From positions 1 to 54,579 of the forward strand of contig CAIWXW010000188.1 in NCBI GenBank assembly GCA_903916755.1: 54,579 nt of DNA. Direction: 5' to 3'. The stretch comes from an uncultured Opitutaceae bacterium (GTDB lineage: Bacteria > Verrucomicrobiota > Verrucomicrobiia > Opitutales > Opitutaceae). The position numbers and the translations under genes were made by a program. Numbering within the stretch: the first letter of the stretch is position 1; every line of letters begins with the position of its first letter. The notes under the pieces are model-generated. The model made no database searches and was not told where the DNA came from. It saw nothing but the letters and a program-made list of their open reading frames with translations. Positions 1 through 18,400 of this stretch are shown piece after piece.

Positions 1-140
1 GCCTGCGGGCAGCCGGGGGGCGCGCCGCGGGCCGGCGTCACCAAGCACTGCTTGCGGCTGCCGTCCGAGTTCGTCTGGAACAGGCAGTAGCCGGTGTTCG
101 TGTCGCCCGTGAAATGGCAGGCCTGGCCGCTCGTGTCCTC
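1..140. other. Window-edge segment that does not continue the NRPS
   Basis: The NRPS frame has a TAG stop at 88–90, and nothing upstream of it resembles an NRPS. Read on the minus strand, roughly 1–150 is open and gives a coherent Cys-rich peptide (including SCPNEDTSGQACHF and TGYCLFQTNSDGS), which runs into NRPS-coding sequence and then meets a stop. The C domain begins almost exactly where this peptide ends, and its first residues (PLVSSFGQERLWF) carry about two extra residues compared with the usual PLSFGQERLWF. This suggests a junction near 125–150, either a rearrangement or an assembly chimera. Confidence 0.4.
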
Positions 141-3100
141 GTTCGGGCAGGAGCGGCTCTGGTTCCTGAACCAGCTCGAGCCGGGCAATCCCTTCTACAA
201 CATGCCCGCGGCCCTGCGGCTGCGCGGCGCCTTTTCGGCGGCGGCGGCGGAGCGCGTCCTGCGCGAGCTGGTGCGCCGCCATGAATCGCTGCGGACGGTG
301 TTCGTCGCGATCGACGGCCGGCCGGCCCAGCGGATCCTTCCGGCGATGCCGGTGCCGCTGGCGCGGGAGGACCTGCGGGCGCTGCCGGCGGCGGCGGCGG
401 CCTCCGCCTTGGAGCGGCTCGCCGCCGAGGAGGCGCGGCGTCCCTTCGACCTCGCGTCCGGCCCCTTGCTCCGGGCCCGGCTCATCCAGCTGGCGGACGA
501 GGAGCACGTGCTGCTGCTCACGATGCACCACATCGTCTCCGACGGCTGGTCGATGGGCGTCCTCACCCGCGAAATGGGCGCCCTCTACGGGGCCTTCACC
601 GAGGAACGGCCCTCGCCCCTGCCGGAGCTGGCGCTCCACTACGCGGACTTCGCCGCCTGGCAGCGGCAGTGGCTGAGCGGGGCGGTCCTGGCGGACCAGC
701 TGGCCTACTGGAAGCGCCAGCTGGCCGGCGCCCCGCCCGTCCTCAAGCTGCCGACCGACCGGCCGCGTCCCCCCGTGCAGAGCTTCCGCGGCGGCAGCCA
801 TGCCTTCGCGCTCGGGCGTCCGCTCGCCGACGCGCTCGCTGCCTTCAGCCGCGAGGCCGGGGCCACGCTTTTCATGACGCTGCAGGCGGCCTTTGCCGCC
901 CTCCTCGGGCGGCTCTGCGACCAGGAGGATCTCGTGATCGGCACGCCGATCGCGAACCGTCACCGGGTTGAGATCGAGCCGCTGATCGGGTTCTTCGTGA
1001 ACACGCTGGTCCTGCGGACGGACCTTTCCGGCGCGCCGACCTTCCGCGAGCTGGTCGGCCGCGTGCGGCGCGGGGCGCTCGAGGCCTATGCGCACCAGGA
1101 TCTGCCCTTCGAGCGGCTGGTGGACGAGCTGCAGCCCGAGCGGGACCTGAGCCGCAATCCCGTCTTCCAGGTCATGTTCGCGCTGCACAACACGCCGCAG
1201 GGCGCGCAGGTGCTGCCCGGCCTGGTGATCGAGGCGCTCCCGGCCGAGCGGATCTCCGCGCAATTCGACCTCGTGCTCGACCTCTGGGAGACGCCCGACG
1301 GCCTGGCGGCGGTGCTCGAATACGCGACCGACCTGTTCGAGCCGGCCACCATCCGCCGCTGCGCGGGGCATTTCCGCAACCTGCTGGCCGGCGCCCTGGC
1401 GGCGCCGGACGCGCCGGTGGGCCGGCTCGAGCTGCTCGATGCGGCGGAGCGGCGGGAACTGCTCGAGGGCTTCAACGCGACGACGATGCCCTATCCGCAC
1501 GACCGCACGCTGCAGGGGCTGATCGCCGAGCAGGCGGCGCGGCACCCGCAGCGGATCGCGGGCGCGCATCGCGGCCGGCGCCTGACGTACGCCGAGCTGG
1601 ACGCGGCCGCCAATCGCCTTGCCCGCCGCCTGCGCGCGCGGGGGGTCCGACGGAACGACTTCGTCGGCATTCTCGACGAGCGCGGGCTCGACTGCCTCGT
1701 CGCCATGGTGGGCATCCTCAAGGCGGGCGCGGCCTTCCTGCCGATCGACCCGGCCTATCCGGATGAGCGCGTCCAGTACATGATCGCCAACAGCGGGGTC
1801 GCGATGCTCGTCACGCGCGAGGCGGTGCTCGCCCGCTTCGACCTCTCCGGCGCGGGCGCCCTGCGCGAGGTGGTGCTCTTCGACGAGCCGGCCGCCGCCG
1901 CCGGGCCGCTGCGGCGCCACGGGCACCGGGATTGGGCGATGGAATCGGCGGCGCCGCTCGCCGACGACGGCGCCAGCGCCGACTACGCCTACCTCCTGTA
2001 CACCTCCGGCTCCACCGGCCTGCCGAAGGGCGCGATCATCCGGCACAACGGCGCGGTCAACCACATCTACGGCCAGTTCCGGGAGCTCGCGTTTCATCCC
2101 GGCACCGCGTTCCTGCAAAGCGCGCCCTCCTCCTCGGACATCTCCGTGTGGCAGTTCCTGGCGCCGCTCCTCATCGGCGGCCGCACGGTCATCGCCGACT
2201 ACGAGACGGTCTGCGACGCGGAACGCCTGCACGCGCTGATCCGGGACGAGGCTGTCACGCTGATCGAGCTGGTCCCGGTCGTGCTCAAGGAGCTGCTGGA
2301 CCACGCCGCGCGGCTGCAGGCCCCGGCGCGGGCGCTCCCCGCGCTTGAATTCTCGATGGTCACCGGCGAGGCCGTGTCGGTCGCGCTGGTGAACCAGTGG
2401 TTCGCCACCTATCCCGCGATCCGGCTGGTGAACGCCTACGGGCCGACCGAGGCGGCCGACGACATCTGCCAGGCGATTCTCGACCGGCCGCTGCCCGCCG
2501 ACCTGCCCACCGTCCCCATCGGTCGGACGCTGCCCAACCTCACGCTCTACGTGCTCGACCGCCACCGCCAGCTCGTCCCGGTCGGCGTGCCGGGGGAAAT
2601 CTGCGTCTCCGGGGTCGGGGTGGGGGCGGGCTACTGGCGGAACGAGGAGAAGACGCGCGAGGCGTTCCCGGCCAACCCCTACGCCGAGGACGGCCGCGGC
2701 GACGTGCTCTACCGGACGGGCGACCTGGGCCGCTGGCGGCCCGACGGCTCGCTGGAGATGCTCGGGCGCTTCGACCAGCAGGTGAAGCTGCGGGGCTTCC
2801 GGATCGAGCTGGGCGAGATCGAGAGCATGCTGAGCCGGCACGCGGCGGTCGCGGAGGCGGTGGTGCTGGTCCGCGAGGACCGGCCGGGCGACAAGCGGCT
2901 CGTCGCGTACCTGACGCCGGACGAGGCCGCCGAGACCCTGCGGGAAAAGCTCGGCGCGCTCCAGGGCGAGCAGGTCGCGCTCTGGCAGGACCTTCATCAG
3001 GACAGCTACCGCGGCACGCTGGACTATGGCGACGCGACCTTCAACGTCATCGGCTGGGACAGCAATTACACCGGCCAGCCGCTCGCGGTGGCCGAGATGC

Positions 3101-6100
3101 GGGAATATGTCGCGGACACGGTCGCCCGGATCCGCGAGCTGCGCCCGCGGCGCGTCCTTGAGCTGGGCTGCGGGACCGGCCTCCTGCTCTTTCCGCTGGC
3201 CCCGGCCTGCGAGTCCTATTTTGGCACGGATCTATCCGCCGTGGCGATCGAGCGCCTCGAGGCCCGGCGGCGGGACCGGCCGGACTTGGGGCACGTCACG
3301 CTCCGCGCCCAACCGGCCGATGATTTCAGCGGCATCGCCCCGGGTTCGCTCGACGCGGTCGTCCTGGGCTCGGTCGTCCAGTATTTCCCCGGCATCGACT
3401 ACCTGCTCACCGTCCTCGAAGGCGCGCTGCGCGCCCTGCGGCCGGGCGGCGCCATTTTCCTGGGCGACGTGCGGGTGCGCGCGCTGCTGCCGGCCTTCCA
3501 TGCCTCGGTCCAGCTCTTCAAGGCCCCCGACCGGCTGGACGCGGCGGGCCTCCGCGAGCGGGTGCGCGGCGCGCTGGCCCGCGAGCAGGAGATGGCGGTT
3601 GACCCCGCCTTCTTTGCGGCGCTGCGATCGCGCTGGCCGCAGCTCACCCGGGTGGAGATCCGGCCGAAGGCCGGCACCGTGCACAACGAGATGACGCGCT
3701 TCCGCGCGGACGTGACGCTCCACACCGACCCCGTGCCCCCGGCGGCGAACCCCGCTTGGGTCGACTGGCGCGACCGCGCCCTCGGCCTGGCGGATCTGCG
3801 GCGCGAACTGACCGGACCGGCCCGGACCGGCCTGGCGCTGCGTCGCGTGGCCAATCCGCGGGTGCAGGCGGAACTGCGCACGCTGGCGTGGCTCGAGAGC
3901 GCGCCCGCCGGCGATACGGTGGGGGGCTGGAAGGCGACCCTCGCGCGCGAGGAGCCGGCGGGTCTCGATCCTTCCGCGCTCGAGACGCTGGGCGCGGAGC
4001 TCGGATTCACGGTCCAGGCGGCCTTCGCCCTTGATGTGGCGGATGGCAGCTTTGACGTGGTCTTCCAGCCGGGGACCGTGGCCCGGCCGGTCGAATTCTT
4101 CGCGGTGGGGGCGCCGCGGCCCTGGCGCACCTACGCCAACAATCCCCTGCACGAGAAGCTCGCGCGCGAGCTGGTCCCGCCCCTCCGTGGCTTCCTGCGC
4201 GAACAGTTGCCCTCGTACATGGTGCCGGCGGATTTCGTGGTCCTGGAGGCCATGCCCCTCCTGCCCAACGGCAAGGTGGACCGGCGCGCGTTGCCGGCGC
4301 CCGAGGCCGGCGCGGCCGAGCGCGACTACGTGGCCCCGGCCACGCCGACGGAGGAGAAGCTCGCCGGCATCTGGGGCCCGGTGCTCGGGCTCGAGCGGGT
4401 CAGCGCGACGGCCAATTTCTTCGAGCTCGGCGGGCACAGCCTGAAGGCCACCCAGGTGGTGAGCCGGATCCAGCGGGACCTGGGAGTCGAGGTGGCCCTG
4501 CGGGAAGTGTTCAACCGGCCCACGGTCCGGGAGCTGGCCCGCGAGATCGAGGGCCGGCGCCGGACCGGCTACGCGCCGCTGCCCCGCGCGGACGAGGCGG
4601 CGCACTATCCGCTGTCGCATGCGCAGCTTCGCCTCTGGGTGCTGGCGCAGATGGAGGGCGCCTCGGCCGCCTACAACATGCCCGCGGCGCTGCTCCTCGA
4701 GGGGACGGTCGATCCGGAGGCGCTGGGACTGGCGCTGGCCGATCTCGCCGCCCGGCATGAGTCGCTGCGGACCACGTTCACGGTGATCGCCGGCGAACCC
4801 CGGCAGCGCATCTCGCGGCGGGCGCTCGGATCCCTCGAACGCGCGGACCTCGCGGGCGAGGCCGACCCGGAAGCCGCGGCCCGAGCGCTGGCCCGCGCGG
4901 ACGCGGCGCGGCCCTTCGATCTGGAGGCCGGGCCGCTGCTGCGCGCCACGCTGCTGCGCCTCGGCGAGGGGCGGCAGGTGCTGCTGTTCAACACGCACCA
5001 CATCGTTTCCGACGACTGGAGCCTGGGGGTCCTCGTCCGCGAGTTCATCCGGGGCTACACCCTCCGGCAGGGCGGCGAGGAACCGGGCCTGCCGGCCTTG
5101 CGCGTGCAATACCGGGACTACGCGGTCTGGCAGAACGCGCAGCTCGAGGGGGAGGCTCTGGCCCCTCACCGCGACTACTGGCGCCGGCAGTTTGCGGGCG
5201 AGATCCCGGTGCTCGATCTCGCGGCCGATTTTCCGCGTCCGCCGGTCAAGACCTACCGGGGCCGGTCGCGTCCGTTCGTCCTGCCGCCGGAGCGCGCCCG
5301 CGAGCTCAACGCGCTCGCCCGCCGGAGCGAGAGCAGCCTTTTCATGCTCCTGGTCGCCGCCGTGCAGGCGCTGCTCCACCGCCAGACGGGCCAGCGCGAC
5401 CTGATCGTGGGCTTCCCCATCGCGGGCCGAAACCATCCCGACCTCGAGGACCAGATCGGATTTTACGTGAACACGCTCCCGCTCCGGGTGCAGATCGAGC
5501 CCGCCCGGCCGTTCACGGCGCTGCTCGACCAGGTGCGCCGGACCGCCACCGAGGCCTTCGAGCACCAGGCCTATCCGTTCGACCGGCTGGTGGAGGACCT
5601 GGCGCTGGCGCGCGACGTCACCCGCTCCCCGCTCTTCGATGCCGTGGTCGTCATGCAGAATGTGGATCCCTACGCGCTGGCGCTGCCCGGCGCGGTGGTC
5701 CGGCCCTTCCTCGACGAATCGGATGTGAGCAAGTTCGACCTCGCCTTTCATTTCGAGGAGCGGGACGGCACCCTGGCGGGCGCGCTGGTCTTCAATCCGG
5801 ACCTTTTCACCGACGAGCACATGGCGCGGCTCGCCGCGCAGCTGCTGAACATCTGCGACAGCGTCGCGGCCGATCCCGCCCAGCCGGTCGGCCGCCTCAA
5901 CCTGCTGCCGGCCGAGGAACGCCGCCGCGTCCTGACGGCGGCCGATCCCGCGCCCGCCGAGTTCCCGCGCGGCGGGACCCTGGTCGCCCGCTTCGAGGCG
6001 CAGGCGGCGCGCGCCCCCGGGGCGGTGGCGCTGACGCTCCCGGGCCCGGGCGGCGGCGCGCTGACCTACGCGGAACTCAACGCGCGGGCGAACCAGGTGG

Positions 6101-7842
6101 CGCATCGGCTGCGCGGCCTGGGCGTCCGGCCGGAGGATCGCGTCGGCCTCTATGTCGAGCGTTCGCTCGAGCTGATCGTCGGCCTGGTCGGCATCCTCAA
6201 GGCCGGAGCCGCCTACCTGCCGCTGGACCCGGCGTATCCCCGCGAGCGGCTGGCGTTCATGCTGCAGGACGGCGGCGTCTCGGTCCTCCTGACACAGGCA
6301 AGCCTGGCCGCGACCGCGGACTTCCGGCCGGCGCGGGTGATCCGGCTCGACGCCGAGGCCGACGGGCTCGCCGCGGGCGACCGCGCGAATCCCCCGCCCG
6401 CGGTGGGACCGGACCACGCCGCCTATGTCATCTATACCTCCGGCTCGACGGGACAGCCCAAGGGCTGCGTCGTGACGCACCACCAGGCCCTGCGGCTATT
6501 CGAGGCCACCGCCGCCTGGTTCCATTTCGGGCCGGACGATGTCTGGACGCTGTTCCACTCCCACGCCTTTGATTTTTCCGTCTGGGAAATCTGGGGCGCC
6601 CTGCTCCACGGCGGCCGCCTGGTGGTGGTGCCCTTCGCGGTCAGCCGCTCGCCCGAGGCCTTCCGCGGCCTGCTGGCGGGCGAGGGGGTCACGATCCTCA
6701 ATCAGACGCCCTCGGCCTTCCGGCAGCTCATGGCCGCCGACGAGGCGGCCCCCGGCCCGCTGGCCCTCCGCGAGGTGATCTTCGGCGGGGAGGCCCTGGA
6801 TGTGCCGGGCCTGCGCCCGTGGTTCGACCGGCACGGCGACCAGCGCCCGCGGCTCGTCAACATGTACGGGATCACGGAAACCACGGTGCATGTGACCTAC
6901 CGGCCGCTGACCCGCGCGGACTGCAACGAGCAGCGCAGCGTGATCGGCGTGCCGATTCCGGACCTGCAGCTGCATGTGCTGGATCCCTGGCTGCAGCCGG
7001 CGCCCATCGGCGTCACCGGGGAGATGTATGTCGGCGGCGCGGGCGTGGCGCGAGGTTACCTGAACCGCCCCGGTCTCACGGCCGAGCGCTTCATCCCCGA
7101 TCCCTTCAGCCGCCGGCCCGGCGCGGTGCTGTATCGCTCGGGCGACCTCGCACGGCGCCTGCCGGAGGGCGATCTCGAATACCTCGGCCGGATCGACCAG
7201 CAGGTGAAGATTCGCGGCTTCCGCGTGGAGCTGGGGGAAATCGAAGCCGCCCTGGCCGGGCATCCCGGCGTCCGGTCGGCCCTGGTTCTGATCCGGGCGG
7301 ACGCTCCGGGGGAGCCGCGCCTCGTGGCTTACATCGTGCCCCGGGCGGCGGCCGTCGCGCCGGCTGAGCTGCGCGATCAGCTGAGGCCGCGGGTGCCGGA
7401 CTACATGGTCCCGTCGGCCTTCGTCTCGCTCCCGGCCTTCCCGCTCACTCCCCATGGCAAGGTCGACCGCCGCGCGCTGCCCGCGCCCGAGGCGGGCGGG
7501 GTGGCGCCTGGCCCGGAGTTTGCGGCGCCGCGGGATCCGCTGGAGGAGACGATCGCGGGGCTCTGGCGGGAGGCGCTCCAGGTGGACCGGGTGGGGCGGC
7601 AGGATAATTTCTTCGACCTCGGCGGCCATTCGCTCCTGGTCGTGCAGGTGCACCGGAAGCTCCGCGCGGAGCTGGGCCGGGAGCTTTCCGTGGTCGACCT
7701 CTTCAAGCACGCGACGATCGCGGCGCTCGCGGAATTCCTCCGCTCCGCACCCGGAGCGCCCGGCGCCGGGCTCGAGGATGCGCGCGAGCGGGCGCGCAGG
7801 CAGCGCGACGCGCGGCGCGCCCGGCCGGGAGGCCAGCCATGA
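94..7842 (+). CDS. Non-ribosomal peptide synthetase, two modules: C-A(N-methyltransferase)-T-C-A(Thr)-T
   Basis: Dimodular NRPS of 2582 aa from a GTG at 94; the true 5' end is probably lost, because the first C domain starts at residue ~12. Domains: C ~12–450 (HHIVSDG 145–151); A1 from ~460 with LLYTSGSTGLPKG near 637, interrupted after core A8 by a SAM N-methyltransferase ~965–1345 (VLELGCGTG near 1021) and resuming with A9–A10 to ~1408; T1 with Ser1449 in LGGHSL; C2 ~1505–1945, whose motif reads HHIVSDD; A2 ~1955–2445; T2 Ser2513. By alignment to GrsA positions, A2 gives DFWNIGMVHK, the established threonine code. A1 reads DIWEMTADDK, which I cannot match. The product therefore contains an N-methylated residue followed by Thr. 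The Arg-rich tail (ARRQRDARRARP) probably docks to the PKS. The stop overlaps the next start (ATGA). Confidence 0.93.
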   Translation: MFVSPVKWQAWPLVSSFGQERLWFLNQLEPGNPFYNMPAALRLRGAFSAAAAERVLRELVRRHESLRTVFVAIDGRPAQRILPAMPVPLAREDLRALPAAAAASALERLAAEEARRPFDLASGPLLRARLIQLADEEHVLLLTMHHIVSDGWSMGVLTREMGALYGAFTEERPSPLPELALHYADFAAWQRQWLSGAVLADQLAYWKRQLAGAPPVLKLPTDRPRPPVQSFRGGSHAFALGRPLADALAAFSREAGATLFMTLQAAFAALLGRLCDQEDLVIGTPIANRHRVEIEPLIGFFVNTLVLRTDLSGAPTFRELVGRVRRGALEAYAHQDLPFERLVDELQPERDLSRNPVFQVMFALHNTPQGAQVLPGLVIEALPAERISAQFDLVLDLWETPDGLAAVLEYATDLFEPATIRRCAGHFRNLLAGALAAPDAPVGRLELLDAAERRELLEGFNATTMPYPHDRTLQGLIAEQAARHPQRIAGAHRGRRLTYAELDAAANRLARRLRARGVRRNDFVGILDERGLDCLVAMVGILKAGAAFLPIDPAYPDERVQYMIANSGVAMLVTREAVLARFDLSGAGALREVVLFDEPAAAAGPLRRHGHRDWAMESAAPLADDGASADYAYLLYTSGSTGLPKGAIIRHNGAVNHIYGQFRELAFHPGTAFLQSAPSSSDISVWQFLAPLLIGGRTVIADYETVCDAERLHALIRDEAVTLIELVPVVLKELLDHAARLQAPARALPALEFSMVTGEAVSVALVNQWFATYPAIRLVNAYGPTEAADDICQAILDRPLPADLPTVPIGRTLPNLTLYVLDRHRQLVPVGVPGEICVSGVGVGAGYWRNEEKTREAFPANPYAEDGRGDVLYRTGDLGRWRPDGSLEMLGRFDQQVKLRGFRIELGEIESMLSRHAAVAEAVVLVREDRPGDKRLVAYLTPDEAAETLREKLGALQGEQVALWQDLHQDSYRGTLDYGDATFNVIGWDSNYTGQPLAVAEMREYVADTVARIRELRPRRVLELGCGTGLLLFPLAPACESYFGTDLSAVAIERLEARRRDRPDLGHVTLRAQPADDFSGIAPGSLDAVVLGSVVQYFPGIDYLLTVLEGALRALRPGGAIFLGDVRVRALLPAFHASVQLFKAPDRLDAAGLRERVRGALAREQEMAVDPAFFAALRSRWPQLTRVEIRPKAGTVHNEMTRFRADVTLHTDPVPPAANPAWVDWRDRALGLADLRRELTGPARTGLALRRVANPRVQAELRTLAWLESAPAGDTVGGWKATLAREEPAGLDPSALETLGAELGFTVQAAFALDVADGSFDVVFQPGTVARPVEFFAVGAPRPWRTYANNPLHEKLARELVPPLRGFLREQLPSYMVPADFVVLEAMPLLPNGKVDRRALPAPEAGAAERDYVAPATPTEEKLAGIWGPVLGLERVSATANFFELGGHSLKATQVVSRIQRDLGVEVALREVFNRPTVRELAREIEGRRRTGYAPLPRADEAAHYPLSHAQLRLWVLAQMEGASAAYNMPAALLLEGTVDPEALGLALADLAARHESLRTTFTVIAGEPRQRISRRALGSLERADLAGEADPEAAARALARADAARPFDLEAGPLLRATLLRLGEGRQVLLFNTHHIVSDDWSLGVLVREFIRGYTLRQGGEEPGLPALRVQYRDYAVWQNAQLEGEALAPHRDYWRRQFAGEIPVLDLAADFPRPPVKTYRGRSRPFVLPPERARELNALARRSESSLFMLLVAAVQALLHRQTGQRDLIVGFPIAGRNHPDLEDQIGFYVNTLPLRVQIEPARPFTALLDQVRRTATEAFEHQAYPFDRLVEDLALARDVTRSPLFDAVVVMQNVDPYALALPGAVVRPFLDESDVSKFDLAFHFEERDGTLAGALVFNPDLFTDEHMARLAAQLLNICDSVAADPAQPVGRLNLLPAEERRRVLTAADPAPAEFPRGGTLVARFEAQAARAPGAVALTLPGPGGGALTYAELNARANQVAHRLRGLGVRPEDRVGLYVERSLELIVGLVGILKAGAAYLPLDPAYPRERLAFMLQDGGVSVLLTQASLAATADFRPARVIRLDAEADGLAAGDRANPPPAVGPDHAAYVIYTSGSTGQPKGCVVTHHQALRLFEATAAWFHFGPDDVWTLFHSHAFDFSVWEIWGALLHGGRLVVVPFAVSRSPEAFRGLLAGEGVTILNQTPSAFRQLMAADEAAPGPLALREVIFGGEALDVPGLRPWFDRHGDQRPRLVNMYGITETTVHVTYRPLTRADCNEQRSVIGVPIPDLQLHVLDPWLQPAPIGVTGEMYVGGAGVARGYLNRPGLTAERFIPDPFSRRPGAVLYRSGDLARRLPEGDLEYLGRIDQQVKIRGFRVELGEIEAALAGHPGVRSALVLIRADAPGEPRLVAYIVPRAAAVAPAELRDQLRPRVPDYMVPSAFVSLPAFPLTPHGKVDRRALPAPEAGGVAPGPEFAAPRDPLEETIAGLWREALQVDRVGRQDNFFDLGGHSLLVVQVHRKLRAELGRELSVVDLFKHATIAALAEFLRSAPGAPGAGLEDARERARRQRDARRARPGGQP
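7827..7832 (+). promoter_or_regulatory. Ribosome binding site for the PKS gene
   Basis: GGGAGG lies 6 bp before the ATG at 7839, inside the 3' end of the upstream NRPS. With the 4-bp ATGA overlap it fixes the PKS start and implies translational coupling. Confidence 0.7.
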
Positions 7843-10800
7843 GCGCGGAAGGTATTGCAATCATCGGCCTGGCCGTCCGGTTTCCGGGCGCGGATTCGGT
7901 GGAAGCCTTCTGGCGCAACCTGCGGGGGGGGGTGGAATCGACCACTTTTTTCTCTGAGGCGGAGCTCCGGGCCGCCGGGGTCGATCCGGTCCAGCTGGCG
8001 GATCCGCGCTATGTGCGCGCCAATGGGGTGCTGCCGGGCGCCGATGCCTTCGACGCGGAATTCTTCGGGCTGAGCCCGCGCGAAGCGGAGGTGACCGACC
8101 CGCAGCATCGCGTGCTGCTGGAGCTGGCCTGGACGGCGCTCGAACGCGCGGGTTATGATCCCGAGCGGATGCCGGGACGCGCGGGCGTCTTCGCCGGGGC
8201 CGGCCTCAGCACCTATCTCCTGAAGAATCTGGCGCCGAACCGCGCGCTGGTGGAATCCGTGGGCGAGCTGGCGCTGCTCCTCGGCAACAACAAGGATTTC
8301 GCGCCGACGCGGATCTCGTACAAGCTGAACCTCCGGGGACCGAGTGTGGCGGTGAATACGGCCTGTTCCACCTCGCTCGTGGCCGTGCACCTGGCGTGCC
8401 AGAGCCTGCTCGACTTCCATTGCGACGTGGCGCTGGCCGGGGGCGTCTCGGTCCAGGTGCCGCAGGCCCAGGGGTATGTGCACCAGGCGGGCGGAATCGG
8501 CTCGCCCGACGGCCGCACCCGGACGTTCGACGCCCGGGCCGAGGGGACGGTGGGCGGAAACGGCGCCGGCCTGGTGGTGCTGAAGCGCCTGGCCGACGCG
8601 ATCGCGGACGGCGACACGATCCACGCCGTGATTCGCGGATCCGCCGTCAACAACGACGGATCCGCCAAGGTCGGCTTCACCGCGCCGAGCGTGGAGGGCC
8701 AGGCCCAGGTGATCGCCGAGGCCCAGGCGGTGGCCGGCGTGGCGCCGCGGGACATCTCGTATGTCGAAGCCCACGGCACCGGCACGGCCATGGGAGACCC
8801 CATCGAGCTGGCGGCCCTCACCGAGGTGTTTGCCGCCAGCACCGCGGATCGCGGCTTCTGCGCCCTGGGCTCGGTGAAGACCAATTTCGGGCATCTCGAC
8901 GAGGCGGCCGGCGTGGCCGGCCTGGTCAAGGCGGTGCTGGCCCTGGAGCACGGCGAACTCCCCCCGAGCCTGCACTATGAGACGCCGAACCCCCGCATCG
9001 ATTTTGCGGGCGGCCCGTTTTATGTGAACGCCCGGCTGGCACCCTGGCCCCGGACTCCGGGCCAACCGCGCCGGGCCGGGGTAAGCTCGTTCGGCATCGG
9101 GGGCACGAATGCGCATGTCGTCCTGGAAGAGGCGCCCGCGCCGGGCGCCGCGGCCGACCCCGGGACGCCGCAGCTGCTGGTCCTCTCGGCCCGCACGCCG
9201 GAGGCGCTCGTCCTCGTCGCGGAAAACCTGGCGCGGGATCTCGAGGCGCATCCGCAGCGGTCGCTCGCCGACGTGGCGTACACGCTGGCGCTGGGACGGC
9301 GGGCCTTTGCCCACCGGCGCGGCGTGGTGGCAAAAACGACCGCGGAGGCCGCGGCCGCCCTGCGGGGAGCCGCTCCGGCGGAGGGTCCGGCTGGACTGGT
9401 GGCCACCGCCCGCGACTGGGAGGCGGGCGGCGCGGTGGACTGGGTGGGCTTTTATGCGGGACAGCGCCGCCGCCGGCTGCCGCTGCCGACCTATCCCTTT
9501 GAACGCCGGCGCCATTGGATCGAAGCGCCGTCCGCCGTCGATGGCGCGGACTCCGCCCCGGCGCGCAAGCGCGCCCGCGTCGAAGAATGGTTCTACCAGT
9601 CCTCCTGGAGACAGGCGGCCGTGCCACCGGCGGCGGCCACGGCCCCGCGCCACCTGGTCTGGTTCGGTCCCGCCGCCGCGGGGGACGAGGCGATCCGCTC
9701 GCTGCGGACCGCGGGGGTGAAGGTGACGGTGGTGGACGACCCGGCGGTCCTGGATGCGGCGCCGGCCGCGCTCGCCTGGGCGCGGAAGCTGAAGGACGCC
9801 GGTGAGCGGCCCACGGACATCGTCCACGCGCGCGGCGCGGGCGTGTTCGATCGGGACGAGGGCTTTGCCGCCGCGCAGGCCGACGGCTACCTTAGCGGGC
9901 TCGCCCTGGTCCAGGCGCTGGTCGCCGCCGATCTGGCGGCGGAGGTTCGCCTCACGTTCCTGCTGCGGCATGCGGCGGATGTCACGGGGTCGGAGGTGCT
10001 GGCCCCGGGCCGCGCGACCCTCCTGGGGCTGGCCAAGGTGATTCCGCAGGAATTTCCCGGCCTCAGCTGCCGGGTCGTCGACCTCACCGGCAGCGAGGCC
10101 GGCGGGGCCGCGGTGGCGGCCGAGCTGGTCAGCGGCGCGACCGATGCGCTGGTCGCCTACCGCGGCTCGCGCCGCTGGGTCCACGCCTTCGCGCCGCTCG
10201 CGCTCGACTCGGCCGCGGGCGCGGCGCGGCTGCGCCCCGGGGCCGTCACGCTGATCACCGGCGGCCTGGGCGGCGTCGCCCTGATCGTGGCAGAGCACCT
10301 CGCCCGCACCGCTCAGGCCCGGCTGGTGCTGGTGGCCCGCCGCGGACTGCTGGCGGGCGCCAGCCCGGTTCCGCGCTCGGAACTGCTGGAGCTCACGGCC
10401 GCCGAAGCCGTCCTGGCGCGGCGCCGGGATCTCGGCGAAGCCGCCACTTACCGCGCCTTCTCCGGCGAGGTGGACCGGCTGTGCGCCGTCCTGGCCTACC
10501 ATTACCTGGCGGACGCGGCTCCGGACCGCTCCCCTGGGCGCCGGCAGTCGGTCGCGGCGCTGCGCGCGGACCTCGGGCTCCTGCCGGCGTTCGGAAAATT
10601 TCTCGACTATTTCCTGCATGTGCTCGCGTCCGATGGCTACCTGGACCGGGCGGGCGACGAGCTTACCTGGCGGCGGGAGCCCGCGACGGTGCCCTCCGCC
10701 GCGTCGGCGATCGCGGATCTCCTGGCCCGCCATCCGGAATTTCGGGGCATCGTCTCGCTCCTGGCCCACTGCGCCCGCTCCTATCCCGCGGCCCTGAGCG

Positions 10801-12470
10801 GGCGGGTCCCGGCCATCAGCGTGCTATATCCCGACGGCCGCTCCGACCTGCTGGAGGCCGCCGGCCGCGAGATGGCGCGGCCGACGAACAAGCCCGTCCG
10901 GATCGCGCTCCTGCGCGAACTGGTGGAGCGGTTGCTGGCGGGAGCCCAGGGCCGGAAGATCCGAATCCTCGAAGTCGGGGTGGGGGACGGCCTCCTCGCC
11001 GGCGAGCTCGTGCCGGGATTGGCCGGCCGCAATGCCGAGTATGTGGCGACCGACCTCAGCCGCGCCTTCGTGGTGAAGGCGGAGAGAGCCGCGACCGCCG
11101 CCGGCTGGGATTTCGTCTCCTTCGACGTGCTCGACATCTCGCGCGACCCGCTGGCGCAGGGCTTTCGCGCCGAGAGCTTCGATCTGATCGTGGCCATGGA
11201 CGTCATCCACGCCACGCCGCGGCTCGCCGAGACGCTCGGGCATCTGCGGACGCTGCTGACGCCCGAGGGCGCGCTGGCGCTGGTCGAGAAGGTCCGCGAC
11301 GAACGCTGGGTGGATCTGGTCTGGGGCCTGGCCGAGGGCTGGTGGTGCTTTGCCGACCCGGAGTGGCGCCAGCTGCATCCGCTGCTGGCGGCCGGCGACT
11401 GGGAGCGGCTGCTCGCCGGCAGCGCGATCGGCGAGGTGGCGGTGTTTCCCGAGGAACCCGCGGCGCGCGCCGCCACCGACTACGCGCTGGTCACGGCTCG
11501 GCGGCGCTCCGGCGCGGCGGCCGCGGTCCGGCGGCTCGAGGCCCTCGGCGCCGAGGTGGTCGTGGAGGAGGCGGACGTGGCCGATCCCGCGCAGCTGCGC
11601 GCCGTCGTGGCGCGGACGGAGGCTCGCTTCGGCGCCCTGCATGGCGTGGTGCACACCGCGGGCCTGACCACCGGCGCGGCGGTCTTCAACCTCCTGCCCA
11701 CGGCGACCGCGGCGCAGGCTGAGGCGCTCTTCCGGCCGAAGGCCCGCGGCGCGGCGGTGCTGGCCGAGGTGCTCGGGGACCGCCCGCTCGACTTCTGCGT
11801 CCTGATTTCCTCCAACGCGTCCGTCCTCGGCGGCCTCGGGCTGGCGGCCTATGCGGCGGCGAACGCCTATCTCGACCTGCTCGCCGCCGAGCAGCGGCGG
11901 CGGGGCCGCGGCCGCTGGACCAGCACGAACTGGGATGGCTGGCCGACGGAGCCGCCACCGGGCGCCGCGGCGGTCCGGACGAGCATCGACCAATTCGCGA
12001 TGACGCGGGCGGAGGCGGAGGCCGCCTTCACCCGGGTCCTGGCCGCGCCCGTGGCCCAGGTGGTGGTCTCCTCGGGCGATCTGGCGGCCCGGCAGCGGCC
12101 GTGGGCGCGGCCCGCGCCGCGCGCGCCGGACGTTGCGGGCGAGGCCGCGGCGGCGGAAGCCGCCTCCTCCTTCCATGCGCGCCCCGCGGCGGCGGGGCCA
12201 TATGTGCCGCCGCGCAGCGGGGCCGAGCGCGCGGTGGCGGCCCTCTGGTCCGAACTGCTCGGCATCGATCCCGTGGGGGCGGAGGATAATTTCTTCGACC
12301 TCGAGGGCGATTCGCTGCTGGGCACGCAGCTGGTGGCGCGCCTCTCCCAGGATTTTGGCGTCACGCTTTCCGTCGGTGTCCTCTTCGAATTCCCCTCCGT
12401 GGCCGGCCTGGCCGCCCGGCTTGAGGCCGCCCAGGCGGAGGCCGGCGAACAGGAGGAAGGCACCCTGTGA
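7839..12470 (+). CDS. Type I polyketide synthase module lacking an AT domain: KS-KR(N)-cMT-KR(C)-ACP
   Basis: Single-module PKS of 1543 aa. KS spans residues 1–~430 with Cys176 in NTACSTS and His residues in EAHGTGT and NFGH. A normal KS–AT linker follows (LLVLSARTPEAL to RRAFAHRRGVVA), but it runs directly into the post-AT linker (RLPLPTYPFERRRHWIE near 535). The ~300-residue AT, with its GQGSQ and GHSxG motifs, is missing. KR starts ~575 with TGGLGG near 806 and is interrupted after LVLVARRGL (~830) by a methyltransferase (ILEVGVGDG near 1042; GLAEGWWCF resembles C-methyltransferases). KR resumes ~1222 with Lys, Ser (LISSNAS), Tyr and Asn (AYAAAN) retained, so reduction is likely. ACP Ser1492 sits in LEGDSL, followed by an acidic tail. 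Expected action: extend threonyl with malonate, C-methylate and reduce it. The acyl loader must act in trans or be missing. Confidence 0.92.
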   Translation: MSAEGIAIIGLAVRFPGADSVEAFWRNLRGGVESTTFFSEAELRAAGVDPVQLADPRYVRANGVLPGADAFDAEFFGLSPREAEVTDPQHRVLLELAWTALERAGYDPERMPGRAGVFAGAGLSTYLLKNLAPNRALVESVGELALLLGNNKDFAPTRISYKLNLRGPSVAVNTACSTSLVAVHLACQSLLDFHCDVALAGGVSVQVPQAQGYVHQAGGIGSPDGRTRTFDARAEGTVGGNGAGLVVLKRLADAIADGDTIHAVIRGSAVNNDGSAKVGFTAPSVEGQAQVIAEAQAVAGVAPRDISYVEAHGTGTAMGDPIELAALTEVFAASTADRGFCALGSVKTNFGHLDEAAGVAGLVKAVLALEHGELPPSLHYETPNPRIDFAGGPFYVNARLAPWPRTPGQPRRAGVSSFGIGGTNAHVVLEEAPAPGAAADPGTPQLLVLSARTPEALVLVAENLARDLEAHPQRSLADVAYTLALGRRAFAHRRGVVAKTTAEAAAALRGAAPAEGPAGLVATARDWEAGGAVDWVGFYAGQRRRRLPLPTYPFERRRHWIEAPSAVDGADSAPARKRARVEEWFYQSSWRQAAVPPAAATAPRHLVWFGPAAAGDEAIRSLRTAGVKVTVVDDPAVLDAAPAALAWARKLKDAGERPTDIVHARGAGVFDRDEGFAAAQADGYLSGLALVQALVAADLAAEVRLTFLLRHAADVTGSEVLAPGRATLLGLAKVIPQEFPGLSCRVVDLTGSEAGGAAVAAELVSGATDALVAYRGSRRWVHAFAPLALDSAAGAARLRPGAVTLITGGLGGVALIVAEHLARTAQARLVLVARRGLLAGASPVPRSELLELTAAEAVLARRRDLGEAATYRAFSGEVDRLCAVLAYHYLADAAPDRSPGRRQSVAALRADLGLLPAFGKFLDYFLHVLASDGYLDRAGDELTWRREPATVPSAASAIADLLARHPEFRGIVSLLAHCARSYPAALSGRVPAISVLYPDGRSDLLEAAGREMARPTNKPVRIALLRELVERLLAGAQGRKIRILEVGVGDGLLAGELVPGLAGRNAEYVATDLSRAFVVKAERAATAAGWDFVSFDVLDISRDPLAQGFRAESFDLIVAMDVIHATPRLAETLGHLRTLLTPEGALALVEKVRDERWVDLVWGLAEGWWCFADPEWRQLHPLLAAGDWERLLAGSAIGEVAVFPEEPAARAATDYALVTARRRSGAAAAVRRLEALGAEVVVEEADVADPAQLRAVVARTEARFGALHGVVHTAGLTTGAAVFNLLPTATAAQAEALFRPKARGAAVLAEVLGDRPLDFCVLISSNASVLGGLGLAAYAAANAYLDLLAAEQRRRGRGRWTSTNWDGWPTEPPPGAAAVRTSIDQFAMTRAEAEAAFTRVLAAPVAQVVVSSGDLAARQRPWARPAPRAPDVAGEAAAAEAASSFHARPAAAGPYVPPRSGAERAVAALWSELLGIDPVGAEDNFFDLEGDSLLGTQLVARLSQDFGVTLSVGVLFEFPSVAGLAARLEAAQAEAGEQEEGTL
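12451..12456 (+). promoter_or_regulatory. Ribosome binding site for the four-module NRPS
   Basis: A perfect AGGAGG ends 10 bp before the GTG at 12467, whose GTGA overlaps the PKS stop codon. It supports the unusual GTG start, which places the TubC-type docking domain at the very N-terminus. Confidence 0.75.
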
Positions 12471-15400
12471 CCGCCCTCGACCAGATCCTGGCCGACGCCG
12501 AGCGGGCCGGCGTGAAACTCTGGCTCGACGGCGGCGAACTGCGTTTCCGCGCGCCGAAGGGCGCCCTTTCGCCGGCCCTGCGGGCCGCCCTCATCGCGCG
12601 CAAGGCCGAGCTGGTGGCGCTGCTCTCGGCCGGGGGCGGCGCCGGCATTGCCCGGGTGCCGGACGCGGCGGATTATCCGCTGTCGCCGGCGCAGCGCCGC
12701 CTCTGGGTGCTGGCGGAAATGGATCCGGCTTCCTGCGCCTATCACATCCCGCTCGCCCTCCTCCTCGTCGGCGCGCTGGACCGGGTCGCGCTGGCCTCGG
12801 CCCTCGCGGCCGTCCTCCGCCGGCACGAGTCGCTGCGCACGGTGTTCGCCGTCGTCGCGGGCGAACCCCGCCAGCGCGTCCTGGATCGCGCGGAGCCCGC
12901 GATCCTGGAGCACGACCTCTCGGGCCGCTCGGATCCCGAGGAGACGGCGCGGGTCTGGCTGCGCGCGGAGGCCGCGCGCCCCTTCGACCTGGCGGCCGGC
13001 CCGCTCCTGCGGGTGGCGCTGCTCCGGCTGGCGCCGGAGCGCCGCGTGCTCGCCGCCACGCTGCACCACATCGTGGCCGACGGCGTCAGCCTCGCGGTGC
13101 TGGTGCGCGAGCTCGCGCAGGCCTACGAGGCGGCCCGCCGCGGGCAGCCCCCGGGCTGGAAGCCGCTGGCGCTGCAGTACCGGGATTATGCCGCCTGGCA
13201 GAACGCGCGCCTGGCCGGACCGGCCCTGGCGGCGCACCAGGCCTACTGGCGGGAAAAGCTCGCGGGCGTGGCCCCGGCCCTCGATCTGCCGTTGGATCAT
13301 CCGCGGCCCGCCGTCCAGACCTTCAGCGGCCGCATCCAACCCTGGAGCCTCGACGCCCGCCGGCTCCAGGCTCTGCAGGCCCTGGCGCGCCGGGAGCAGG
13401 CGAGCCTGTTCATGGTGCTGGTCGCGCTCGTCAAGGTGCTGCTGCGCCGCCACACCGGGCGGGAGGACATCGTCGTGGCGAGCCCCATCGCCGGCCGCGA
13501 GGAGCCGGCGCTCGAGGGCCAGATCGGATTCTACCTCAACACCCTGGTCCTGCGGGACCAGGTGGAGGGCGCCGCGTCGTTCCGCGCTTTGCTGCGGCGC
13601 GTGCGCGCCTCCGCGCTCGGAGCCTACGAGCACCAGGCCTATCCCTTCGACCAGCTGGTCAATGAGCTCGGCCTGCCCCGTGACCTGAGCCGCGCCCCGC
13701 TCTGCGACGTCGTGGTGATGCTGCAGAACACGGGCGACCTGCACTTGTCGCTCGCCGGGGTGGCGGCGCGGGCGTTTCCATTCGAGGCCGGGGTGAGCAA
13801 GTTCGACCTGACCTTCGATTTCCAGGAGGGCGCCGATGGCCTGGAGGCGGGCCTGGAATACAACACGGACCTCTTTGCCTCCGACCGCATCGCCCGGCTG
13901 GCGGCGCAGCTCAGCACCCTCGTCGACGCGGTTCTCGCCGCGCCGGATCGGCCCATTGCCCGCCTCGCCCTCCTGCCCGGGGCGGAAGTCCGGCAGCTCG
14001 CGGAGACCTTCAACGCGACGGCGGTGGCCGTGGACGAGGGCGCGACGGTGGTCAGCCTGGTGGCGGCCCAGATGGCGCGCTCGCCTGCGGCCGCCGCGAT
14101 CGTCTGCGGAGGCGAGTCCCTGACCTATGCCGAGCTCGACCGCCGGGCCGACCGGCTCGCCCGGCGGCTCCGCCACCAGGGTGCGGGTCCCGGGCGTCCG
14201 GTGGGCGTCTGCCTGGAGCGATCGCCCGACCTGGTCGTCGCGCTGCTCGCGGTCGCGCGCACCGGCGCGCCCTACCTGCCGCTCGACCCGATTTTCCCCC
14301 CGGAGCGTCTCGCCTTCATGCTCGAGGATTCGGGCGCGGTCCTGCTGGTGGCCGACGACCGTGTGGATTTCCCCCTCCCCGGCACCTGCGCCCGGATCGC
14401 CCCGCGCGCCGCCGGGGAGGCGGATGACGCTGCGCTCCCTCTCCCGCCGGTGGCGCCCGACCAGCCTGCCTACCTCATCTACACGTCCGGTTCAACCGGG
14501 CGGCCCAAAGGGGTCGCGGTGCGGCATGCCGGCCTCGCCCAGTTTCTGCTCAGCCTGCGCGAGCAGCCCGGACTGTCGGCGGCCGACGCGCTGCTGGCGG
14601 TGACCACGATCTCCTTCGACATCGCCGGCCTCGAACTCTGGCTGCCGCTGATCGTCGGCGCGCGGATCGTCCTGGTCGGCCGCACGACCGCGGCCGACGG
14701 GGCGGCGCTGCGGGACAGCCTGGCCAGCTCCCAGGCCACCGTGCTGCAGGCGACCCCGGCCACGTGGCGCCTCCTGCTGGCGGCGGGCTGGCCGGGCACG
14801 CCCGGCCTGCGCATGCTCTGTGGCGGCGAGGCGCTGCCGGGCGACCTGGCGCGGCAGCTCCTGCCGCGCGGCGCGGAGCTCTGGAATCTCTATGGGCCGA
14901 CCGAGACCACCATCTGGTCGACGCTGCGGCGGGTGACCCCGGTCGACGCGGCCGAAAGCACCGTGACCATCGGCCGGCCGATCGCGAACACCCAGTGCCG
15001 GGTGGTCGACGCCGCCGGCGAACTGGCCCCGATCGGCGTCCCGGGAGAATTGCTGATCGGCGGCGCGGGCGTGGCGCAGGGGTATTGGCGGCGACCGGAG
15101 CTCACCGCGGACAAGTTCATCCCGGATCCGTGGGGACCGCCGGGCGCGCGGCTTTACCGCACGGGCGACGTGGCGCGGTGGCGGGCTGACGGGACGCTGG
15201 AATTTCTGGGGCGCGGCGACGACCAGGTGAAGCTGCGCGGCTATCGCATCGAACTGGGCGAGATCGAGGCCGCCCTGGCGGCGCATCCGGCCGTCCGCGC
15301 TGCGACCGTGGTCCTGCGCGAGGACGTGGCCGGGGATCCCCGGCTTGCCGCCTACCTCGTGCCCCGGACGGAGGGCGGGCTGGCCGACCCCGCCGAACTG

Positions 15401-18400
15401 CGCGCCTTCCTCCGCGACCGGCTGCCGGAATACATGGTTCCCACCGCCTGGCGGACCCTGGCGGCGCTGCCGCTGACGGCCAATGGCAAGGTGAACCGCC
15501 GCGCCTTGCCGGCGCCGGAGGCCGCGGACTCAGCGGACGCCGCGGCGTATGTCGCGCCGCGGACGCCGGCGGAGGCGGAGGTCGCCGCCATTTGGGCGGC
15601 CGTGCTCGGCGTCCCGCGCCTGGGCGTCGACGACAATTTCTTCGAGCGCGGCGGCCACAGCCTCAAGGCGACGATGGCGGTGGCCCGACTGCGGCAGTCG
15701 CGCGGCGGCGATGTCTCGCTGGCGGACCTTTTTCGCCATCCCACCGTGGCGGCCTTCGCCGGGCGGCTCGGCCCGCGGACAGTTCCGCCGGCCGCGGCCG
15801 CGGCCGGGGAACCCGTTGGATCCGCGCCCCTGTCGGCGTCCCAGCGGCGGCTGTGGATCATCGACCAGATGCGCCCGGGCCTCGCCGCCTACCACATGCC
15901 GGAGGCGCTGCGGCTGGAGGGGCCGCTCGATTCCGCGGCGCTGACGGCGGTGGTGCGCGCGCTGGTCCGGCGTCACGAGGCGTTGCGGACGATTTTCGTG
16001 GCCGAAGGCGGCGAACCCCGCAGCCGGGTTTGCGCCGCCGACGATTTCCGCGTGCGCGAGGTCGACGTGGCGGGCCAGGGCGATCCCGCTGGCGCGGCGC
16101 GCGCCGTGGCCGAGGCGGAGGCGGCCGCCCCGTTCGCGCTTGATCGCGGCCCGCTTTTTCGCGCGACCCTCGTGCGGCTGGCGCCGGAGCGGCATCTGCT
16201 ACTCTGCACGCTCCATCACATCGTGGGGGACGCCTGGTCGGTGGCGCTGCTGCTCCGCGAATTGACCGCCCTCTATGATGCCCAGGTGGCGGGCCGGCCG
16301 GATCCGCTCCCGATCCTGCGCGCCGGTTACGGCGACTTTGCCCGGTGGCAGGAGCGCGAGCTGGCGGGTGCCTCCGGCGCGGCGCAGCGCGCCTATTGGC
16401 TGAAGCAGCTGGCCGGCGAACCGGCCGCGCTGGCGCTGCCCACGGATTTCCCCCGGCCCGCGCTCCAGACGGCGGCCGGCCGCACGGTGGTGTTTGCCTT
16501 TGGGGCTGAGCTTTCCGCGGCCCTGCTCCGCCTGGGCGCGCGCCATGGCGCCACTCCGTTCATGGCGCTGCTGGCCCTCGTCAAGACGCTGCTGGCGCGA
16601 TACACGGGCCAGAGCGACATCAGCGTGGGCACCCCGGTGGCCGGCCGCGACCGGCTGGATTGGGAAGGGCTGGTGGGCTTCTTCGTCAACACGCTGGTGC
16701 TGCGGGACCGGGTGGAACGGACCGCGGGTTTCGCGCAGCTGCTGGAGCAGGTCCGGGACACGTGCCGCGCCGCCTTCGCCCATCAGCTCTATCCCTTCGA
16801 TCGCCTGGTCGACGACCTCCGGCTCGCGCGCGATCTCAGCCGTCCGCCGCTCTTCGACGTGTCGGTTCAGCTCCTGCACGCGGAGGGCGCGGCGCCGGCT
16901 TTGGCCGGCCTCCGAGCCGAGGCCTACGATCACGGCCACACCCCGGCCAAATGCGACCTGAGCTTCGATTTCACCGCGGGGACGGACGGGGTATGCTGCG
17001 CCCTCACGTACAACTCCGACCTGTTCGCCCCGGCCCGGATCGGGCGGCTGGCGGAGCATCTGGTTCGGCTGGCCCGATCCGCGGTGGCGGATCCCGCCGG
17101 GCCGCTCAGCCGGCTGGCGCTGCTGGAGGAGCCCGAACGGCGCCGGCTGCGCGCCGAGTTCAACCCGCCGGCCGCGCCGCCCGGCGCCCGGGCAATTCCC
17201 GAGGTGTTCGCCGCGCTGGCCGCGCGCCAGCCGGAGCATCCGGCCCTGCGGCACGGCGGGGTGGCCTGGTCCTATCGCGAGCTCGACGAGCGATCGAACC
17301 GGCTCGCCCAGATCCTGCGCCAGCGGGAAGTCGGGCCGGAGCGGCGGGTGGGGGTCCTCCTCGAACGGGGCCTCGAAATTCCGTGGGTTTTCCTGGCCGT
17401 CCTGAAGGCGGGCGGCGTCTACCTGCCGCTCGATCCCCTGCATCCGGCCGAGCGGCTCAGGCTCATGGTGGCCGATGCCGAGCCGACGCTCATCCTCACG
17501 CAGGCGAGCCTGCGGGACCGCTGCCCCGGAGGGGTGCCGGTCGTCGCCTGGGAAGAGCTGGCCGCCGAGCTGGAGGCCGCCGCGCCGGCCACTCCGCACC
17601 CCCCGCCGGCGGCCGGGCAGGCGGCCTATCTCATCTACACGTCCGGTTCGACCGGGATGCCCAAGGGGGTGGTGGTCGAGCATCGCGGGCTGGTCAACAC
17701 GATGGCCGACCAGGCGCGGCGGCTAGCCATGATGCCGGCGGACCGGGTGCTGCAGTTTGCCAACAGCTCGTTCGACGCCTCCATCTTCGAGATCTTCCTT
17801 GCGCTGCTGAGCGGGGCGACGCTGGTGCCCGCGCTCCGCACCACCCTCGCGGATCCGCGCGAGTTCCTCTCCTTCCTGAAGCACGAAGGGGTGACGGTGG
17901 CCGTGCTGCCGCCCTCATTCCTGCGCAGCCTCGACCAGGCGCCGCTCCCGCTGCGCGTCCTCTTCACCGCGGGCGAGGCCGCCCGGCCCGAGGATGTCCG
18001 CCATTACCGGGACCAGCTGACCTATGTGAACGGGTATGGCCCGACGGAAGCCTCCATCTGCAGCACGGTCTATGTGGTGCCGGGCGGCGACGCGCTGAGC
18101 CCGGGCGGCGTCCCGATCGGCGTGCCGCTGGCCGGCACCCAGGTCCATGTGCTCGATGCCGACCTCCAGCCCGTCCCGCAGGGGGTGGTCGGCGAAATCT
18201 GCGTGGGCGGTGCCGGGGTCGCGCGCGGGTCCTGGCGCCGGCCCGAGCTCACGGCGGACCGGTTCGGGCCGGATCCATTTTCCGAGGCGCCGGGCGCCCG
18301 GCTCTATCGCACCGGCGACCTCGGCCGCTGGCGGGACGACGGCGTCGTGGAATTTGTGGGCCGGGCCGATGCCCAGGTGAAGCTGCGGGGCTATCGCATC

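What the first reader, a model, noticed from the sequence alone, without database searches (positions are those of the whole stretch)
9150..9600. PKS module from which the AT domain appears cleanly removed
The KS–AT linker (LLVLSARTPEAL to AHRRGVVA) is followed within about 40 residues by the post-AT linker (RLPLPTYPFERRRHWIE). Both belong to the cis-AT architecture, yet the ~300-residue AT between them is gone while KS, KR and ACP keep their catalytic residues. This differs from classical trans-AT modules, which have their own KS clade and flanking subdomains. It suggests a recent conversion of a cis-AT module to loading in trans. No stand-alone AT is in the window.
Basis: partly seen in the sequence, partly recalled or inferred. 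Interest (0 to 1): 0.75.

Follow-up and report, generated by a model that had tools for sequence, protein, structure and literature searches.

The report
AT-less module derived from cis-AT
One module of a bacterial lipopeptide assembly line has lost the domain that loads its building block, as have several sister modules in related bacteria, so the block is probably delivered by a shared enzyme, perhaps one borrowed from fatty-acid synthesis.

Summary
The PKS gene at 7839-12470 goes from KS and KS-AT linker straight into the post-AT linker, with no acyltransferase. It is not a misassembly: another Opitutaceae MAG has the same junction (74% identity over residues 2-573). Counterparts in three more genomes carry an AT, two shown as KS-AT on one frame, one cut by a contig end. 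AT phylogeny makes absence the derived state.

But its linkers and predicted fold match known AT-less units, best OzmN KS2 of oxazolomycin, and NaPDoS2 already describes hybrid trans-AT KSs that clade with hybrid cis-AT (PMC9582728, passage).

The module is not alone. In six genomes (this one included) modules 2 and 4 of the six-module line lack AT, module 3 has it, and 1, 5 and 6 vary: intact, decayed or gone. Two one-contig relatives each show no free AT except one FabD-sized protein. Loading in trans is therefore likely, probably by FabD, with module 3's AT as rival. "Recent" is not supported: KSs are 74-80% identical.

The parts
7839..12470 (+). PKS gene, module 6 (M6) of the cluster: KS - [no AT] - KR(N) - MT - KR(C) - ACP
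7848..9143 (+). ketosynthase, hybrid cis-AT clade, Cys/His/His motifs present
9171..9368 (+). KS-AT linker retained (PF22621, PF22336); the AT-docking/flanking subdomain of AT-less modules
9369..9410 (+). junction where the AT is missing
9411..9518 (+). post-AT linker (RDWEAGGAVDW...LPTYPFERRRHWIE)
9561..10352 (+). KR structural part and first half of the KR Rossmann domain (boundaries approximate)
10449..11480 (+). methyltransferase nested inside the KR (boundaries approximate)
11487..11942 (+). second half of KR with SSN and YxxxN motifs
12231..12422 (+). acyl carrier protein domain (GDSL), which would have to be loaded in trans
94..7842 (+). NRPS upstream (two stretches each of condensation, adenylation and carrier domains, one methyltransferase), matches G015 2494425-2502131
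12467..27895 (+). NRPS downstream with N-terminal TubC-type docking domain
27953..31369 (+). NRPS module with methyltransferase and thioesterase

Best explanation
This is an AT-less extension module of a hybrid NRPS-PKS lipopeptide line, derived from an AT-bearing module. Shown: AT absent; KS-AT and post-AT linkers kept; KS, KR and ACP motifs kept; AT present in counterpart modules; the same junction in an independent genome; codon differences that fit purifying selection on the KS. Inferred: the ACP is charged with malonate by an acyltransferase acting in trans, most likely the housekeeping FabD; the KS extends the chain, and the nested methyltransferase and the KR process it. Dependence on trans loading is probably older than this module's loss, because modules 2 and 4 lack an AT in all six genomes, and it may be what allowed further ATs to decay.
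For: AT absent from module and contig. Same junction in L047, an independent MAG. AT in cis in counterpart M6 of G015 and G096, and in the G102 fragment. ATs of those three M6 form one clade (100/98) and four M5 ATs another (99/93), so presence is ancestral. M2 and M4 AT-less in 6 of 6 genomes, M3 with AT in 6 of 6, one of these cut by a contig end. One-contig genomes G015 (rated 100% complete) and G096 (98%) show only their cis-ATs, a decayed M1 AT in G015, and one FabD-sized AT each. The free AT of G000 passes the fabD equivalog model, 300.5 against 260.9. KS codon differences G000 against L047 are 0.14/0.11/0.48 by codon position, whereas the decayed M1 AT (G000 against G015) shows 0.42/0.45/0.55. 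FabD is reported as trans-AT for AT-less NRPS-PKS in barnesin (PMC13096860, passages) and for PipC (PMC12828459, passages).
Against: No sequence evidence singles out FabD over the M3 AT. The G000 assembly is about 93% complete and its cluster lies on four contigs, so a trans-AT could be missing there, though hardly from the one-contig relatives. In barnesin, leaving out the native FabD only slightly lowered production in E. coli, whose own FabD probably stood in. PipC ACP also self-acylated at 25 uM or more. AT-less linkers resemble one another more than AT-bearing ones do (G000 M5-M6 61%, G015 M5-M6 45%, KS about 67-68% in both), which could mean that an AT-less junction was exchanged rather than made by separate deletions. 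No product is known.
Confidence: 0.55

Rival explanations
1. The AT-less modules are charged by a cis-AT of the same assembly line, most plausibly that of module 3, acting on other modules' ACPs.
For: M3 is the only module with an AT in all six genomes, with GHSxGE and YHS motifs seen in the 5 of 6 where enough of it was recovered, while M1, M5 and M6 ATs are intact, decayed or gone.
Against: The published FabD cases are AT-less modules served by FabD without a dedicated trans-AT (passages). M6 lies several proteins away from M3. An AT retained for its own module explains M3 equally well.
Confidence: 0.25
2. A dedicated trans-AT exists in G000 but lies in the unassembled part of the genome.
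For: G000 is 93.0% complete in 227 contigs.
Against: The cluster contigs C174, C129, C51 and C188 map side by side on G015, the first two joins within 13 and 19 bp. G015 and G096, each on one contig, have AT-less M2 and M4 and show no dedicated trans-AT.
Confidence: 0.07
3. Module 6 does not extend: it passes the chain on, is skipped, or a neighbouring module acts twice in its place.
For: It lost its AT and lacks the DH and ER seen in G015 M6. Iterative use of the previous module was proposed for an irumamycin module whose AT lacks the catalytic Ser (PMC11672594, passage).
Against: KS, KR and ACP motifs are present, the frame is open over 1543 residues, and codon differences fit purifying selection on KS and, less strongly, methyltransferase.
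Confidence: 0.1
4. Assembly artefact: an AT was collapsed out at 9369-9410.
For: The window is a draft MAG contig; reads could not be mapped.
Against: Independent MAG L047 has the same junction. M5 on another contig has a similar, non-identical one. Both are in frame and match the ends seen in solved AT-less KSs.
Confidence: 0.02

Closest known systems
Oxazolomycin AT-less KS units (OzmN KS2, PDB 4wky; OzmQ KS1, 4oqj)
   Same: KS of the hybrid clade, KS-AT linker and post-AT segment at the same places with no full AT between; top rows of the structural search (two 4wky chains, then 4oqj)
   Different: As I recall, that pathway has a dedicated discrete trans-AT; here none was found beyond FabD
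FabD-dependent AT-less NRPS-PKS modules: PipC (pseudotetraivprolide) and BrnF (barnesin)
   Same: AT-less PKS modules in NRPS hybrids for which no dedicated trans-AT was found; PipC keeps an AT docking domain (passages)
   Different: In the passages seen, each line has one AT-less PKS protein; here six PKS modules mix intact, decayed and absent ATs
Kirromycin and alpiniamide mixed cis/trans-AT PKS-NRPS
   Same: AT-bearing and AT-less modules in one line (passages)
   Different: Kirromycin uses discrete ATs KirCI and KirCII
Hybrid trans-AT KS subclass of NaPDoS2
   Same: A KS that clades with hybrid cis-AT KSs in modules lacking AT (passage)
   Different: NaPDoS2 itself was not run; part of that text concerns non-elongating KSs lacking the catalytic His, whereas the His motifs are present here

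Membership tests
Hybrid AT-less (hybrid trans-AT) module | no AT between KS and the processing domains | tested here: met
Hybrid AT-less (hybrid trans-AT) module | KS clades with hybrid cis-AT KSs | tested here: met
   42-row clade (31 cis, 10 AT-less, 1 unlabelled), support 100/100; NaPDoS2 not run
Hybrid AT-less (hybrid trans-AT) module | KS-AT linker/AT-docking subdomain and post-AT segment retained | tested here: met
Hybrid AT-less (hybrid trans-AT) module | ACP charged by an acyltransferase in trans | not testable with these tools
   needs a biochemical assay
Classical trans-AT PKS | KS in the classical trans-AT clades | tested here: not met
   against four reference KSs (4z37, titled trans-AT PKS; 7zma, 7zmc and 5erb, trans-AT by recall)
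Classical trans-AT PKS | dedicated discrete AT in the cluster or genome | tested here: not met
   in the six genomes only one FabD-sized free AT each; G102 has one further contig-cut AT of unknown setting; G000 is a draft
Canonical cis-AT module | AT fused after the KS-AT linker | tested here: not met
FabD-served AT-less NRPS-PKS | no free AT other than FabD in the genome | tested here: met
   on a draft genome; fabD model run on the G000 protein only
FabD-served AT-less NRPS-PKS | FabD malonylates the module's ACP | not testable with these tools
   needs an in vitro assay

The most novel reading that the evidence does not exclude
A cis-AT assembly line caught shifting to trans loading without acquiring a trans-AT: within one conserved six-module line, FabD or one surviving cis-AT serves every ACP, so ATs are lost module by module (M5 and M6 in the window's genome, M6 also in L047's genome by the same or a separate loss, M1 decaying in two relatives). 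This would show how trans-AT lines can arise, with loss first and a dedicated AT only later.
Probability: 0.4. Interest if true: 0.65.

Novelty: new variant of a known kind. Interest (0 to 1): 0.45.

Why it matters
How cis-AT lines turn into trans-AT lines is, as far as I know, mostly inferred from deep phylogenies. Here modules with an intact, decayed or absent AT can be compared at matching positions of the same line in related genomes, two of them single contigs showing no dedicated trans-AT. That makes 'AT loss first, carried by FabD or a shared AT' directly testable, and shows natural junctions at which an AT was removed while the KS stayed under selection.

Tried and rejected
Classical trans-AT membership: rejected by the KS tree. 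The strong total PDB score of 7zma came from two KS copies in one chain; per domain it scores 344-369 bits against 623 for 4wky.

One loss or two of the M6 AT in G000 and L047: left open. For two: the KS tree places AT-less G106 (L047) M6 beside AT-bearing G015 M6 (100/92) with G000 outside, and G015 and G106 are sisters in M1, M3, M4 and M5 at 100/97-99, in M2 only at 94/38. For one: holding the two AT-less KSs together is not rejected (p-AU 0.338). Also, next to the junction G000 and G106 M6 are closer (linker 56%, post-AT 69%) than G106 and G015 (51%, 65%), although their KSs are further apart (79% against 85%); these are short stretches of 71 and 48 columns. The M6 tree also puts G096 inside, unlike the other modules.

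Copying of an AT-less junction between M5 and M6: not excluded. G000 M5-M6 linker and post-AT are 61% and 58% identical, below the KSs (68%), so no recent conversion shows. But AT-bearing pairs are lower (G015 45% and 50% with KS 67%; G096 37% and 42% with KS 61%), and G000 M5 against G106 M6 is 59% and 56%. Exchange or a shared constraint could cause this.

The first KS tree thinned rows by identity and dropped G015 M6; it was replaced. Rows dropped or changed: one search labelled 130 KSs as 113 cis, 14 AT-less, 3 unknown. The C129 KS was relabelled AT-less. L077_11, counted AT-less, was dropped for because its PTYPF spacing (438) suggests an unrecognised AT. Outside cis rows left after one search were thinned to every second one. 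In the group table two unknown rows were counted under 'ref' and two Ozm rows under AT-less. The decayed M1 AT of G015 was labelled 'cis' by the rule and relabelled. M5 of G098 lies in broken frames and was counted neither way.

Papers: 9 of 10 searches used. Those cited were seen as passages only. Not held: Lohman 2015 on AT-less KSs. No paper on this cluster stood out in the Opitutaceae search (12 of 2,773 listed), and none on MT nested in KR (12 of 25 listed).

Full report
What is there. The window is a whole contig (C188) of a 3.35 Mb draft genome, G000, 93.0% complete in 227 contigs. The gene 7839-12470 encodes KS, KS-AT linker, post-AT linker, KR, methyltransferase, KR and ACP, with no AT. 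NRPS genes flank it. KS motifs TACSTSL, EAHGTGT and KTNFGH are present; KR SSN/YxxxN and ACP GDSL are present.

It is one of four AT-less modules in this genome. PF00109 gives ten KS places; six lie in modular PKS genes. PF00698 gives three places: two inside PKSs and one 331-residue frame that passes the fabD equivalog model, 300.5 against a cut-off of 260.9. Modules 1 and 3 keep an AT; modules 2 (P0003), 4 (P0004), 5 (P0002, cut by a contig end after the junction) and 6 (the finding) do not. M5 and M6 keep the KS-AT linker; M2 and M4 lack most of it.

The cluster. Contigs C174, C129, C51 and C188 map side by side on a one-contig relative, G015. C174 ends at G015 2468504 and C129 starts at 2468517; C129 ends at 2485084 and C51 starts at 2485103. 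The C51-C188 join is less exact, because the last piece of C51 matched another NRPS module best. A gene outside the cluster on C188 is found in 12 of 13 genomes of the genus, G000 itself included, at 63-71% in the others, so the contig fits its bin. The line starts with an AMP-binding domain of fatty-acyl ligase type (type by recall), so a lipopeptide is likely (inference).

Relatives. Module 2 was found at nearly full length (E reported as 0) in 6 of 252 genomes of the family, G000 included, and in none of the other 12 same-genus genomes. One of the six, G106, is the MAG of locus L047, titled 'uncultured Opitutaceae bacterium' (same contigs and coordinates as G095). So the window's family is probably Opitutaceae. 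G015's length matches what I recall for Opitutus terrae PB90-1; I did not check this.

AT by module in the six genomes. M1: intact in G000, G096 and G102; decayed in G015 (GAGAGE for GHSxGE, YHS motif not found) and G106 (GAGIGE, YHS not found); not recovered in G098. M2: none in 6 of 6. M3: present in 6 of 6, one cut by a contig end. M4: none in 6 of 6. M5: present in G015, G096, G102 and G106; none in G000; G098 has broken frames. M6: present in G015, G096 and G102 (the G102 fragment starts inside the AT, so its KS is not seen); none in G000 and G106; not found in G098. Free ATs: one FabD-sized frame in each genome (331 residues in G000, 317-320 in the other five), plus in G102 one contig-cut AT next to a DH-like stretch, not assigned to these modules. 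Only the G000 protein was run against the fabD model.

Not a misassembly. L047, an independent assembly, runs through the same junction at 74% identity over residues 2-573, followed by methyltransferase and KR, not by an AT. Junctions in G000 M5, G000 M6 and L047 are similar but not identical in sequence and length. Reads were not available.

Direction of change. KS tree, 74 rows, careful method: the M6 KS sits in a 42-row clade (31 cis, 10 AT-less, 1 unlabelled; 100/100) separate from four classical trans-AT references. M6 rows form (G000 no AT, (G096 AT, (G106 no AT, G015 AT))), 100/99. M5 of G000 nests among AT-bearing rows. The AT-less label needs 11 changes on this tree, at least 6 forced by starred branches. 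AT tree: three M6 ATs are one clade (100/98), four M5 ATs another (99/93). So AT presence is ancestral in M5 and M6 and absence is a loss. Whether M6 lost its AT once or twice is open: the KS tree and the other modules favour two, but the AU test does not reject one clade (p 0.338), and the short flanks of the junction are slightly closer between the two AT-less M6 than the KSs would suggest. AT-less linkers also resemble one another across modules more than AT-bearing ones do, so exchange of an AT-less junction is not excluded.

Selection. KS of M6, G000 against L047: differences at codon positions 1/2/3 are 0.14/0.11/0.48. M1 AT, intact G000 against decayed G015: 0.42/0.45/0.55, while the KS of the same module gives 0.18/0.13/0.47. 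For scale, intact M1 ATs of G000 and G096 give 0.35/0.33/0.61, so ATs vary more than KSs even when intact. The KSs look constrained; the decayed AT little if at all.

Fold. AlphaFold2 on residues 1-590 with 17 rows gives mean pLDDT 83.8. Ten-residue blocks are 89-96 in the linker (441-510), 80 at the junction (511-520) and 90-94 in the post-AT segment (521-560). Best PDB match: OzmN KS2, TM 0.88/0.90, rmsd 4.4, 57% identity over 579 columns, then OzmQ KS1.

Mechanism. Shown: absence of the AT, partner motifs, constraint, and other modules AT-less throughout the six genomes. Inferred: loading in trans. FabD is the first candidate because it is the one AT found outside the PKSs and has precedent. 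For barnesin the authors conclude that FabD acts as trans-AT, although omitting the native FabD in E. coli lowered production only slightly (PMC13096860, passages). For PipC, FabD was shown to malonylate the ACP in vitro, with some self-acylation at 25 uM or more (PMC12828459, passages). The M3 AT is the rival because it alone is present in every genome. Skipping or iteration by a neighbour is a further rival (PMC11672594, passage).

Comparison. [quoted passage not shown] Displacement of ATs in trans has been proposed for algal PKSs (PMC4661987, passages). Mixed lines are known from kirromycin (PMC5818483, passages) and alpiniamide (PMC6113372, passages). The module itself is therefore a known kind; the lineage-by-lineage AT loss in one line with no dedicated trans-AT found is the less usual part.

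Noticed in passing
window 10323-11942: The methyltransferase is nested inside the KR (KR N-half, MT, KR C-half). The same nesting occurs in an AT-bearing module of Desulfobacterales HSG2 (L073), while G015 and L047 M6 place MT before KR.
   Followed up: partly
L037 2902-9246 (G015) and L135 908-5716 (G106): Module 1 ATs are decayed in place: catalytic GHSxGE replaced by GAGAGE or GAGIGE, YHS motif not found, yet the frame stays open.
   Followed up: yes
ATs of M1 and M3 in the related genomes: M1 and M3 ATs do not separate by module: G096/G102 M1 group with G096/G098 M3 (100/98), suggesting exchange between the two ATs.
   Followed up: no
M2 and M4 (P0003, P0004): These AT-less modules lack most of the KS-AT linker as well, leaving a short stretch before the next domain; an AT docking subdomain may not be needed.
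   Followed up: partly
L041 10035-13763, L043 112-3678, L046 2066-7456, L095, L108: Further AT-less KS modules in G035, G038, G062 and in Desulfobacteraceae and Clostridia MAGs; in the first three, AT-bearing modules lie on the same contig.
   Followed up: no
window 27953-31369: The NRPS protein has a methyltransferase that probably lies inside its AMP-binding domain: two AMP-binding stretches are reported and the best one starts at profile position 152, after the methyltransferase.
   Followed up: no
L141 5059-7833 (G098): Module 5 of G098 lies in several broken frames; pseudogene or assembly errors.
   Followed up: no
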